This document shows positions 30,527 through 35,703 of a DNA stretch of 64,000 nucleotides, piece by piece. Below the pieces are notes generated by a model. It was not told where the DNA came from and did no database searches. It saw only the letters and a program-made list of their open reading frames with translations. Location of the stretch: contig OX465283.1 in assembly GCA_949987705.1 (NCBI GenBank), positions 91,189,813 to 91,253,812 on the forward strand, read 5' to 3'. Made by a program: the position numbers and the translations under genes. The stretch comes from Thereva unica (Eukaryota; Arthropoda; Insecta; Diptera; Therevidae). Within the stretch, counting starts at the first letter, position 1. Each line of letters starts with the position of its first letter.

Positions 30527-30658
30527 ATATATATATATATATATATATATATATATATATATATATATATATATATATATATATATATATATATATATAT
30601 ATATATATATAATATATATATTTATATATATATATATATATATATATATATATATATA
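30527..30658. repeat. (AT)n dinucleotide array
   Basis: About 130 bases of almost pure AT with two small interruptions near 30611 and 30621. It abuts the 3' end (poly-A side) of the R1-clade element. Open frames across it (Ile-Tyr repeats) are artefacts. Confidence 0.97.
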
Positions 30659-30859
30659 TTTTTTTTTTTTTTTGTTTTACGGGGGATGGTGAGACTCTAC
30701 ATAGACACTTCTGAGGTTCCCGCACTCAGACCGAGTTTCAGACTCCTACTGAATAAACTCACCACCCCTTTGTGTGACGCTTACCCCGCCCGGGACCGCC
30801 GCGAGGCATTACTTCGGGCGGGCGCCACCACCATGACCCTTTAGGTGTCCCTCTGGTCC

Positions 30860-33800
30860 TTACCCATGGGGGTTGCTACTGCTCTCGGCATTTCTTCGCC
30901 TTTCTCTGTTTCTTCTGGCCTCTTCTTGCCTTAACTTTCTGTGAATGGCCTTCAGGGTTTCTTCCACTTTCTTCCACATTTCCTCGGATCTCATCATATG
31001 CTCTACGATGTTTTCCGGCGTTAGTGGCGCCTGGGCCGTTTCTTCTAATGTCGCCCTTTCCTCGGCGTATCTCGAGCAGGCAAAGAAGACGTGCTCTGCG
31101 TCTTCTTCCGTCGCTGGGCATACCGGACACATCGGTGAATCGTCGTGCCCGAAGCGGTGGAGATATTTCCTATATCCCCCATGTCCGCTCAGGAACTGCG
31201 TGAGGTCGTAGCTTACTTCCCCACGCTCCCTAGAAACCCATATTTCCACGTTAGGGATAAGTCTGTGGGTCCAACGACCCTTAACAGACTCATCCCACTT
31301 CCCCTGCCACTCCATTAGGGACTCACAGCGCGCAATCTGCCGCCGTACCCTTCTTGGTTGCCCTCTACCATATTCTGGGTCATAGAGACGCATGCCCTCC
31401 CTCGCCAGAATGTCTACGGGAATCATCCCCGCTATCACGCACGCCGCATCGTCGGACGTGGTCCTGTACGCGCAGCAAGCGCGGAGTGCACTTAACCTAT
31501 ATGCACCCCTCCATTTTCTACTATTTGCAGTCCTGTTTAACGCTGCTGCCCACACTGGCGCTGCGTATAACAGGACTGAGCTAACCACCCTCCCCAAGAG
31601 GAGGCGGCGACTCGGTCTAGGGCCCCCGACATTGGGCAGCATTCTTGCGAGTGCTGCACAAATCGCAGAAGCTTTGTCTGCCGTGCCCTCCAAGTGCGCT
31701 TTGAAATTTAGCCTCCGATCGATCATCACTCCCAGGTACCTTAGAGCGGGCTGTGAGTGGATGATCAGTTCCCCCACCTTGATCCTCACGGATACTGGCT
31801 TTCGCCGTTTGCTGATCAGCACTGCTTCAGTTTTGTGCTCAGCAAGCTTCAACCCAGCGCGTTCTAACCACGCTTTTATTTCCCAAATCGCTTCGTTCGC
31901 ATACAGTTCGATGTCATCTGGGTGTTTTCCTTCGACAACTACCCCGATATCATCTGCGAACCCGATCGCCACTGCTTCCTTTGGAAGACGAAGCCCCAAC
32001 ACATCATTGTACATTGCGATCCATAGGAGAGGGCCCAGGACGGAACCTTGCGGGACGCCGCATGTTGTCCCGAACACTTTAGGACCATCATCCGAATCAC
32101 AATGAAGCGACCTACCCTGCAGGTAGTCGGCCACTACACGCACTAGGTACTTAGGTGTGCCTAGCTTGATTAACGCCTCAACTATTTTGCTCCACCTCGC
32201 TGAGTTGAAAGCATTTTTTACGTCGAGGGTTATCAGTGCGCAGCAGTGATTTTTCTCTATGGCGGCTTTTGCTATGCCCACCACCATATTGATTGCATCA
32301 GTAGTCGTCCTTGCCTTTCTGAAGCCGAATTGCTTGTCCGACAGGCCACCTACCCTTTCGACGCTAGGGAGAATCCTGTTACAGATCACCCGCTCGAAAA
32401 GTTTGCCTATGCAACTAAGGAGGCATATCGGTCTGTAGGACGATGGGTCCCCTAAGGGCTTGTTCGGCTTCGGTAGGAGCACGAGTTTCTGCTGTTTCCA
32501 TCGCTCCGGGAAGATCCCCTCTCTCAGGCACGCTGTGAAGACTTCAGCGAACCTGTCTGGCGCTATTGAAGCTGCTAGCTTCGCCGCTTTATTTGGTATG
32601 CCATCCATGCCAGGGGCCTTATTGATGGCTACCTTTTTTGCAGCCTCCAGAATCTCATCTGCGGTCACCGCAGGTACCTCTTCTGGGTCCACCTGAAGGG
32701 TGGGTAGTTCGGCGGCGCGTACGTTCTGTGGAAACAAGACGTACACAATGCTCTGGAGCAGCGCGGGGCAGGTGATCGGCGGAGAGCGTTTGCCCTTGAC
32801 CGCTGACATAACCATTTTATAGGCTCCACCCCAGGGGTCCGAGTCTGCTTCTCTGCACAATCTTTTGAAGTGCTCGGATTTACTTCTAGCGATGGCCTTG
32901 TTCAGCCTTCTCCTCGCTTCCTTATATCTCTGAAGGAGTTCATCGAAATCAGGACGGTTCCGATTTCTTTGAGTTCTCCTTCTCGCTTTCAGGCAGGCTC
33001 TTCGGCATTCGTTGATCTCGGCGTTCCACCAGAAGTTTGGTGGGTGTTGCCGATTGCCGGCGCGCCGAGGCATGGATGCATCACATGCCCGTTTTAATGA
33101 ATCTACGATTTGCTCTGCCCCTTCCCTGGCACCTCCTGCCGACCTCGCATCATGCAGGAATACTTCCTCGAATACCTCTGTGTCGAGTTTATTTACGGCC
33201 CATCCTCTAGCCGTTCCGTACGTAGGATTCCTCTTTTCTATACCCTGGCCTACCTCGAAGATAATGGCTTGGTGGTCGCTGTGCGTGTACAAATCGCTCA
33301 CCCGCCACTGTAGGTCCTTGGCCACTGAATCGCTCACGTAAGTGATGTCGATTACAGACGCTCTCCCACCCCTTTGGAAGGTGTTTTCGCCTCCAGTGTT
33401 GACCAACACCACATTTAGTCGCGAGAATACTTCTAGGAGTATGCGCCCTCTTGCATTCGTTTGTCGACTGCCCCATTCGACAGCCCAAGCATTGAAATCA
33501 CCCGCTAATATTACCGGGTGATGGCGACTCGCGTCGGCGGCTAACCTTTCCAACATCGACTCGTACTCGTCTAGTGTCAGGCTTGGCGCCGCATAGCAGC
33601 TGTAGACGTGTATTCCGCCTACTTTTGCCCGCGTGAAGCCATTCTCTGGGCTTCTCATGGTATCTTCCATGGCTCGGCTCCCGCACGTCCATATCGCTGA
33701 CGTGCCGCTGCTATCATTTATCCAGACGCCGCTGTGCAGGTTTCTATACTGCTCGCAGACGATTGCGACGTCGATTTTCTCCTCATAGACTGTCTGTGCC

Positions 33801-33892: not shown

Positions 33893-35421
33893 CTACTACC
33901 TCCGGTCACGTGCCCACTATCCCTGCCCTCTACCTCCCTACAAATTAGGCATTTGGCAGCTTGGTCACACTCCTTTACTTTGTGACCCTCTTTTCCGCAG
34001 CCTCGGCACAGCCTTCCTCTATCCTGGCTGCTGCTGCAGTTTTTCGCTATGTGGCCGAACTTCATGCATTTGAAGCACGGTTTAAGCGATACCCGCTCCC
34101 GCATTCGGCATACCACCCAGCCGACTCGAACTTTACCTGCTGCGATAGCCTTCTTCGCAGCTTCAACAGGCAGGCTTATAAACGCCGTCTGAGTGCCCCC
34201 CCACGACTCTCTTAGCCTGAGGACATCCTTTTCCTCGACCGTCAGACCTAGCTGGGTCCTCAGTGCTTCGCACACCTCTTCCTTGGTTGTGATCTCGTCC
34301 AAGTCTCTACACTCGATCACTACCGTATTTGTACTGGCTCTCACTTCAGCCACCCCGTTAATCGATGCTTTAACCTTCTGTTCTAAGTCCCCGGTCTTAG
34401 CATCTCCCCTCTTTAGCTCTAGCAGGAGATCGCCCTTTTGCGTTCTCCTAACTCTATTTACGCTGTTTCCCAGTTCCGCCAGGGAGGCATCTGTCCTCAC
34501 CTTGCGAAGGCTCTCCGCGTACGTTGCTTCCCCTTTGGTCGTGATGATAATTGCATCCGACCGGGTCCTTTGCCTCAGCTTGTTGGCCTCTTTCAGTCTT
34601 CTTTTCTTTTTCTTCCTCTTTTTTCTTTCCACCTTCTTCCAGGCAGAGCTTTCCCGGTTCCCAATCTCGCATTCAACCGGGCGTGCCGCCTGTATCGGGG
34701 CTGGCTCGGCCACTGCGTCGGGAGTCTTTCCCTTTTTTCTCTTGGGGGTGTGCTGCTGCAGCTGCACCTCCTCGTTGAGCTCTCTACGGCGCTTGTGCGG
34801 CCGCGGCTCTTTGTTCTTTTCTTGGGGCCGTTTCTCTACAGCATCCCCGGTTGAACGGCTCTCTTTTTTGTGCGGCGAAACTTCTGTTTGAGCCGACGTA
34901 TCCTTCAGCTCTTTCGCCCTCTGCTGGGTAGTTATTTCCTCCTTGGCCTTGAGGTAGGTAGACCTAACCCGCCTAATTTTCTCCTTTATGGCGAGCTCGA
35001 CGTTTTTCTTTGCGTCGACATACTCCATGAGGTCTCTTATCATAACCCCTAATTTATCAAAAGGGGATGATTGAGCCTCCTCCGCTGTGGTCGCCGGAGT
35101 GCTCACCCTCACTTCGCCATTTTCCGCTGACCCAAGGTCCTTGATGCACTTTAATGGCGGTGTTCTAACCGTTTTGTTGCTCCTAGGAACGGAATTTTGA
35201 TTTCCTTCTTGAGCCGCACTTTGTTGCTCAGAACCGGGATGCTCCTGGTCCTTAGCACTCTTTGGTGGTGGTGTTCTCACCGTCTTTCTGCTCCTTTGGA
35301 TGGAGTTACCATCTTCCGGAGTCGCCCTTTGTTGGACTATAAAAGCCCTGGCTGTGTTTGGAGCTTTGGGAGGTGCTCCAACCTCATTGGTTTTTGTGTG
35401 TTTCTCTATGTTGAATCCCAC
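33850..35421 (-). CDS. R1-clade ORF1: gag-like nucleic-acid binding protein
   Basis: 523 residues. The N-terminal half is charged and low in complexity (repeated NKTVRTPPLK / RKTVRTPPPK motifs, Lys/Arg/Glu-rich coiled stretches to about 290). A globular region at about 340-430 has the RRM-like layout of R1-clade gag proteins. Three CCHC knuckles follow: CFKCMKFGHIAKNC (about 450), CRGCGKEGHKVKEC (about 472) and a longer CLICREVEGRDSGHVTGG (about 490) ending in RC. It would coat the RNA and help reach the target. No stop or frameshift is seen. Confidence 0.9.
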   Translation of the reverse strand: MGFNIEKHTKTNEVGAPPKAPNTARAFIVQQRATPEDGNSIQRSRKTVRTPPPKSAKDQEHPGSEQQSAAQEGNQNSVPRSNKTVRTPPLKCIKDLGSAENGEVRVSTPATTAEEAQSSPFDKLGVMIRDLMEYVDAKKNVELAIKEKIRRVRSTYLKAKEEITTQQRAKELKDTSAQTEVSPHKKESRSTGDAVEKRPQEKNKEPRPHKRRRELNEEVQLQQHTPKRKKGKTPDAVAEPAPIQAARPVECEIGNRESSAWKKVERKKRKKKKRRLKEANKLRQRTRSDAIIITTKGEATYAESLRKVRTDASLAELGNSVNRVRRTQKGDLLLELKRGDAKTGDLEQKVKASINGVAEVRASTNTVVIECRDLDEITTKEEVCEALRTQLGLTVEEKDVLRLRESWGGTQTAFISLPVEAAKKAIAAGKVRVGWVVCRMRERVSLKPCFKCMKFGHIAKNCSSSQDRGRLCRGCGKEGHKVKECDQAAKCLICREVEGRDSGHVTGGSRCPAYKEALKRRRR

Positions 35422-35647
35422 GAGTTGCGCGAGAAAGGACAGTCACCCATGGCAGAGCTCCGCATTACCACGGGAAGGCTACATTGAAACCGAAGGTCGC
35501 CTGGTATTCGGAGTTCATCGTTAGCGGTACACTGACGCAGTACCATACATCCCCTCAGCACGATTGTTTCCACCTTGGGATTTCGTGTATCTATCTTAGT
35601 TAGGAAGAAGCCTCACCACCACGACAAGGTGTAGATACGAGGTGAGG

Positions 35648-35703
35648 ATATATATATATATATATATATATATATATATATATATATATATATATATATA
35701 TAT
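35648..35703. repeat. (TA)n array between two R1-clade copies
   Basis: About 55 bases of pure TA. It abuts the 5' end of copy 1 and the 3' end of copy 2. On the minus strand the order is copy 2, (TA)n, copy 1, (TA)n. Confidence 0.97.

What the first reader, a model, noticed from the sequence alone, without database searches (positions are those of the whole stretch)
30527..35703. R1-clade retrotransposon that appears to target (TA)n dinucleotide arrays
A full-length R1-clade element sits exactly between two TA arrays, and a second copy also has its 3' end directly on TA. Known R1-clade elements include ones specific for 28S rDNA, telomeric repeats and AC-type microsatellites. A lineage whose endonuclease selects plain (TA)n would be a further specificity that I do not know to be described. 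Seen: the junctions, both copies and the ORF plan. Inferred: that the target is selected rather than coincidental or grown afterwards by slippage.
Basis: partly seen in the sequence, partly recalled or inferred. Interest (0 to 1): 0.87.

Follow-up and report, generated by a model that had tools for sequence, protein, structure and literature searches.

The report
Jumping gene seated in TA repeats
An intact insect-type jumping gene, probably of the R1 group, lies inside a run of repeated TA letters and seems to carry a self-cutting RNA at its front end; whether it seeks out TA runs on purpose rests on one locus and needs a genome-wide count.

Summary
Copy 1 is an intact two-ORF non-LTR element (minus strand, 35647 to about 30674). 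It abuts a 56-bp TA array at its 5' end and, after 15 A, a 133-bp TA array at its 3' end. All 4 TA runs of 10 bp or more in the 64 kb belong to these two arrays. The endonuclease is closest to TRAS1 and R1Bm among solved structures, which supports 'R1 clade', though no tree with named R1-clade references could be built.

New here: the first base of copy 1, flush with TA, is the first base of a predicted HDV-like self-cleaving ribozyme (weak in Rfam). The 3' end is a hairpin shared with copy 2, then poly(A) in copy 1. So the TA arrays lie outside the element. The closest analogue is Dong: (TAA)n plus 5' HDV-like ribozyme.

TA selection is plausible but unproven. The two copies share one array, so they are not independent sites, and copy 2's other end is not in TA. 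The census of copies could not be done: the genome search did not complete (23 of 23 calls).

The parts
30527..30659 (.). (TA)n array, 3' flank of copy 1, with interruptions between 30611 and 30623
30659..30673 (-). poly(A) tail, 15 A in the element's sense (the outermost base could belong to TA)
   Evidence: sequence
30674..30859 (-). 3' UTR; terminal hairpin arms 30758-30768 and 30681-30693, closing just before the 3' end CGTAA; same arms in copy 2 at 35788-35798 and 35709-35721
   Evidence: (MFE folds of both copies; no covariation test)
30860..33892 (-). ORF2, 1010 aa: APE endonuclease, reverse transcriptase (FADD), C-terminal CCHC
33850..35442 (-). ORF1, open stop to stop (first Met at 35043), C-terminal zinc knuckles; overlaps ORF2
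35587..35647 (-). predicted HDV-like self-cleaving ribozyme: P1 35647-35641/35617-35611, P2 35638-35632/35593-35587, P3 35630-35628/35620-35618; cleavage would fall between TA and base 35647
   Evidence: (Rfam HDV model, far below threshold)
35648..35703 (.). pure (TA)28 array: 5' flank of copy 1 and 3' flank of copy 2
35704..41086 (-). copy 2, degenerate: pieces 35705-35975, 36142-36854, 36862-37524, 40886-41086; holds a 166-bp palindromic insert and a hAT-like insert; its 5' side is not TA

Best explanation
Copy 1 is an intact (potentially active, untested) R1-clade-like non-LTR retrotransposon that inserted by target-primed reverse transcription inside a (TA)n array that already lay beside the 3' end of an older copy of the same family. 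Proposed cycle: (1) the element is transcribed, possibly by read-through from the TA side (inferred); (2) a 5' HDV-like ribozyme cuts off the TA leader, leaving an RNA that starts exactly at the element (predicted from sequence); (3) the polyadenylated RNA is bound through its 3' hairpin (inferred); (4) the TRAS/R1-type endonuclease nicks a strand of (TA)n, and the freed ...AT-3' end primes cDNA on the poly(A) (inferred from the junction); (5) the cDNA's 3' end joins the TA array on the other side. The endonuclease most likely prefers TA arrays (inferred). Because (TA)n is self-complementary, either orientation would be allowed, unlike TRAS and SART.
Against: There is effectively one TA locus. 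Copy 2's 5' flank is not TA, although internal deletions make its end uncertain. No other copies could be examined. The ribozyme is a prediction from one sequence; its Rfam score is at chance level by itself (an unrelated snoRNA scored E 1.4 in the same) and far below the gathering score; it has almost no P4; my descriptor was written after I had seen the helices; and the same layout without the catalytic core also occurs at 14107 plus (P2 of 7 bp or more) and at three further plus-strand places with P2 of 5 bp. A loose version allowing G-U pairs was not discriminating. R1-clade placement of the RT was not tested against named references.
Confidence: 0.52

Rival explanations
1. The TA array is a by-product of copy 2: an A-rich or TA-seeded 3' tail grew by slippage into a microsatellite, and copy 1 later landed in it by chance or through a loose AT preference. 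No TA specificity exists.
For: Copy 2 has TA on its 3' side only; both arrays can be one array split by copy 1; copy 1 carries a poly(A) run next to TA.
Against: Landing inside an array this rare (no other run of 10 bp or more in the window) is unlikely without preference. Copy 2 has no poly(A) remnant between its 3' end and TA.
Confidence: 0.27
2. The element inserts at many AT-rich sites and this locus is simply a conspicuous case picked out by the first reader.
For: Ascertainment: the finding was chosen because of the TA arrays. According to my recall some R1-clade elements have lost strict specificity.
Against: The flanks are arrays of 28 and about 67 units rather than generic AT-rich DNA, and both edges of copy 1 lie in them.
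Confidence: 0.13
3. Assembly artefact: contigs were joined or trimmed at TA arrays, which are hard to assemble, so copy 1 and copy 2 may not be neighbours.
For: TA arrays are known trouble spots (general knowledge); array lengths in an assembly are unreliable.
Against: Each element edge would still adjoin TA in the reads. No reads are available here to test this.
Confidence: 0.08

Closest known systems
Dong (R4 clade, Bombyx mori)
   Same: Carries an HDV-like ribozyme that cuts at the element's 5' end, releasing a leader of TAA repeats in vitro (PMC3774820 passages); insertion in (TAA)n is implied there and recalled.
   Different: Different clade; a restriction-like endonuclease (recalled) instead of an APE endonuclease; TAA rather than TA.
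SART1Bm and TRAS1 (R1 clade, telomeric TTAGG repeats)
   Same: APE endonuclease of the same fold (TRAS1); tandem-repeat target; [quoted passage not shown]
   Different: The target is the telomeric repeat, which fixes orientation; no 5' HDV-like ribozyme is mentioned in the passages I read.
Mino (AC repeats) and Waldo (ACAY repeats), R1 clade
   Same: R1-clade elements of short tandem repeats. Mino at AC repeats is stated in PMC3124438; Waldo at ACAY is recalled.
   Different: Different repeat unit.
R1 tandem arrays of Drosophila
   Same: Tandem copies separated by target sequence (PMC3414825 passages).
   Different: The separator is a 14-bp 28S rDNA duplication; R1 is suggested there to have its own promoter.
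MuTAnT Mutator-like transposons and sesarmid nimaviruses
   Same: Insert into TA microsatellites (PMC4486113 search listing; PMC10871703 passages).
   Different: DNA transposition (Mutator-like; Ginger2-like DDE enzyme), not target-primed reverse transcription.

Membership tests
R1 clade of non-LTR retrotransposons | ORF2 with APE-type endonuclease, RT and a C-terminal CCHC knuckle | tested here: met
   Pfam Exo_endo_phos_2 and RVT_1; C-x2-C-x8-H-x4-C at residue 922
R1 clade of non-LTR retrotransposons | ORF1 with C-terminal zinc knuckles | tested here: met
   Two CCHC knuckles by pattern, a third C-x2-C-x9-H-x6-C read by eye in the translation; that three knuckles are typical is recalled
R1 clade of non-LTR retrotransposons | Endonuclease most like those of known R1-clade elements | tested here: met
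   Among solved structures TRAS1 and R1Bm rank first by sequence and highest among chains aligned to the endonuclease part alone
R1 clade of non-LTR retrotransposons | RT groups with R1, TRAS, SART, Waldo and others in a tree | tested here: inconclusive
   The tree of 68 rows holds no named reference element; the query groups in a 14-row set (SH-aLRT 99) of unnamed relatives, best identity 53%
(TA)n-specific retrotransposon | Most independent copies lie in (TA)n | not tested
   The genome search gave no answer in 23 of 23 tries; one locus only
(TA)n-specific retrotransposon | TA flanks both ends of a full-length copy | tested here: met
   Copy 1
(TA)n-specific retrotransposon | TA flanks both ends of the second copy | tested here: not met
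   Copy 2: TA on the 3' side only; its 5' end may be deleted
HDV-like ribozymes | Double pseudoknot P1, P2, P3 with catalytic C in J4/2 | tested here: met
   (prediction from one sequence, descriptor written after inspection)
HDV-like ribozymes | Score above the curated Rfam threshold | tested here: not met
   13.9 bits against 44 for RF02682; no family at gathering in the window
HDV-like ribozymes | Self-cleavage at the first base | not testable with these tools
   needs a bench co-transcription assay

The most novel reading that the evidence does not exclude
An R1-clade lineage whose endonuclease selects plain (TA)n, in either orientation, and whose 5' HDV-like ribozyme trims the TA leader from read-through transcripts. 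This would be convergent with Dong at (TAA)n, and perhaps the first HDV-like ribozyme recognised in an R1-clade element (the Ruminski 2011 survey was seen only as a reference entry, so priority is unchecked).
Probability: 0.38. Interest if true: 0.72.

Novelty: new variant of a known kind. Interest (0 to 1): 0.52.

Why it matters
TA arrays are widespread, self-complementary and mostly outside genes (general knowledge), so they would be a safe harbour for an element. An APE endonuclease that reads plain (TA)n would help to show how R1-clade enzymes switch between rDNA, telomere and microsatellite targets. A 5' ribozyme exactly at a microsatellite junction, in a clade other than R2/R4, would suggest that self-release from repeat co-transcripts evolved more than once, and it gives an independent marker of the true 5' end for a census of insertion sites.

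Tried and rejected
Genome census of the 3' UTR: the genome search was called 23 times and never answered. Relatives in contig collections: viral contigs with the window ORF2 gave none and with alignment A1 none; genome contigs with A1 gave 1 distant locus, L001, from a Phycisphaerales MAG, 26% identity, not used.

Rejected: chance placement of the arrays. Rejected as unlikely: TA as part of the element (ribozyme edge, 3' hairpin plus poly(A)). Considered and not kept: treating copy 2 as an independent second TA insertion. In my notes I first called the 166-bp insert TTAA-flanked; with copy 1 as reference the duplication is TAA. The first loose ribozyme scan was swamped by TA-array hits and by G-U pairs (27.4 hits per simulated strand, 5.1 with core; 10 simulated strands) and was replaced by the Watson-Crick version.

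Papers: 10 of 10 searches used; the lists were capped (for example 20 of 25, 30 of 35, 15 of 79, 15 of 88, 15 of 24), and two found nothing. No listed title or abstract describes an R1-clade (TA)n targeter. Seen as passages only: PMC3124438, PMC10871703, PMC4640811, PMC4120745, PMC10088271, PMC7265360, PMC2718515, PMC5035012, PMC4035085, PMC8256844, PMC3414825, and PMC3774820 (section 16 in full). MuTAnT (PMC4486113): search listing only. Kojima and Fujiwara 2003/2004 and Ruminski 2011: reference entries only, content recalled.

Full report
What is there. The element lies on the minus strand from 35647 to about 30674. ORF2 (30860-33892) is an unbroken 1010-codon frame with an APE endonuclease, a reverse transcriptase and a C-terminal CCHC knuckle. 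ORF1 (33850-35442, first Met at 35043) ends in zinc knuckles and overlaps the start of ORF2. It is flanked by a pure 56-bp TA array at the 5' end and a 133-bp TA array at the 3' end. All 4 TA runs of 10 bp or more in the window are parts of these two arrays.

The edges. At the 5' edge the sense strand goes straight from (TA)n into CCTCACC. That heptamer is the first strand of a predicted HDV-like double pseudoknot: P1 7 bp, P2 7 bp, P3 3 bp, a 7-base L3, and CTAAGA before the second strand of P2. Rfam's HDV-F-prausnitzii model aligns end to end from base 35647, but only at 13.9 bits against a threshold of 44 (E 1.7); in the same call an unrelated snoRNA model scored E 1.4, so this score alone is chance level, and nothing in the window reaches a gathering score. 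A Watson-Crick descriptor with the CNRA core found 1 site in both strands of the window, this one, with the TA arrays masked. Without the core, four other places appear with P2 of 5 bp or more (7512, 14107, 30411 and 53163, plus strand), of which 14107 remains at 7 bp. In 40 simulated 64-kb strands there were 0 hits with P2 of 6 bp or more plus core, and 0.125 per strand with P2 of 5 bp or more plus core. A loose version allowing G-U pairs was not discriminating (5.1 per simulated strand with core). The helices were noticed by eye before the descriptor was written, so these counts are supportive rather than a blind test. The P3-L3 core shares 9 of 11 bases with the R2 consensus quoted in PMC5035012; the motif with two free positions occurs once in both strands, where about 0.5 would be expected by simple arithmetic, so its place matters more than its presence. 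P4 is nearly absent; R2 ribozymes with too few bases to form P4 are reported (PMC3774820, section 16).

At the 3' edge both copies end in a hairpin closing just before CGTAA. Copy 1 then has AAC and 15 A before TA; copy 2 has a single G and then TA.

What the second copy does and does not show. Copy 2 is degenerate: it has lost a large internal piece, is interrupted by a hAT-like insert with an 8-bp duplication and by a 166-bp palindromic insert, and its aligned pieces are 83-92% identical to copy 1. Its 3' end abuts the same 56-bp array that forms the 5' flank of copy 1. If the two arrays were one before copy 1 arrived, the site was a TA array of about 190 bp beside copy 2. The two copies are thus two events at one array, not two independent TA sites. 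The far end of copy 2, around 41087, is not TA; this is either a later deletion or evidence that copy 2 did not sit inside TA.

Mechanism. [quoted passage not shown] the order UTR, poly(A), repeat at the 3' end here fits that kind of reaction. The 5' junction (repeat, then a ribozyme starting at the first element base) is that of Dong, whose ribozyme cuts off TAA repeats in vitro (PMC3774820 passages). The best-supported picture is therefore target-primed insertion into a pre-existing TA array by a TRAS/R1-type endonuclease, with ribozyme release of the element RNA from a transcript that began in or beyond the TA array. Shown: the order of parts, the open frames, the positions of the edges. 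Predicted: the ribozyme, the hairpin, the folds. Inferred: nicking at TA, preference for TA, read-through transcription.

Comparison. Known R1-clade targets include 28S and 18S rDNA, AC repeats and telomeric repeats (passages in PMC3124438 and PMC10088271; ACAY for Waldo recalled). TA microsatellites are known targets of DNA-based elements: MuTAnT in Medicago (search listing) and nimaviruses of sesarmid crabs. In the passages read, HDV-like ribozymes are named for R2, R4, Dong, Baggins, L1Tc and RTE elements, not for R1-clade ones, and Drosophila R1 is said to be suggested to have its own promoter. The primary surveys were not seen, so I do not claim priority.

Limits. All conclusions about target choice rest on one locus.

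Noticed in passing
35587-35647 (minus): Predicted HDV-like ribozyme at the exact 5' end of copy 1; not in the finding as given, and possibly its most testable part.
   Followed up: yes
37525-40894: hAT-like insert in copy 2 with ends CAGGGCTCGGCAACC / GGTTGCCGACCCCTG and an 8-bp duplication CTCTAGCC; 'hAT-like' rests on the duplication length and ends, no family search was made.
   Followed up: partly
35976-36141: 166-bp palindromic miniature insert in copy 2, flanked by TAA on both sides; would fit a PIF/Harbinger-type MITE (recalled).
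   Followed up: partly
4072-5824: Tandem duplication of 877 bp at 99.8% identity; part of it is about 90% identical to pieces at 24216-24594 and 50864-51243.
   Followed up: no
44380-49321 (minus): Gypsy-like LTR element: weak protease, RT and RNase H in one frame, a weak integrase core in another; closest protein 74% identical.
   Followed up: no
17563-19509 and 61215-63692: Two copies of another RT element, 90-98% identical in pieces.
   Followed up: no
23170-25000 and 50459-52333: Two inverted copies of a third RT element at 95% identity; the second overlaps an 809-aa open frame with RT and DUF6451.
   Followed up: no
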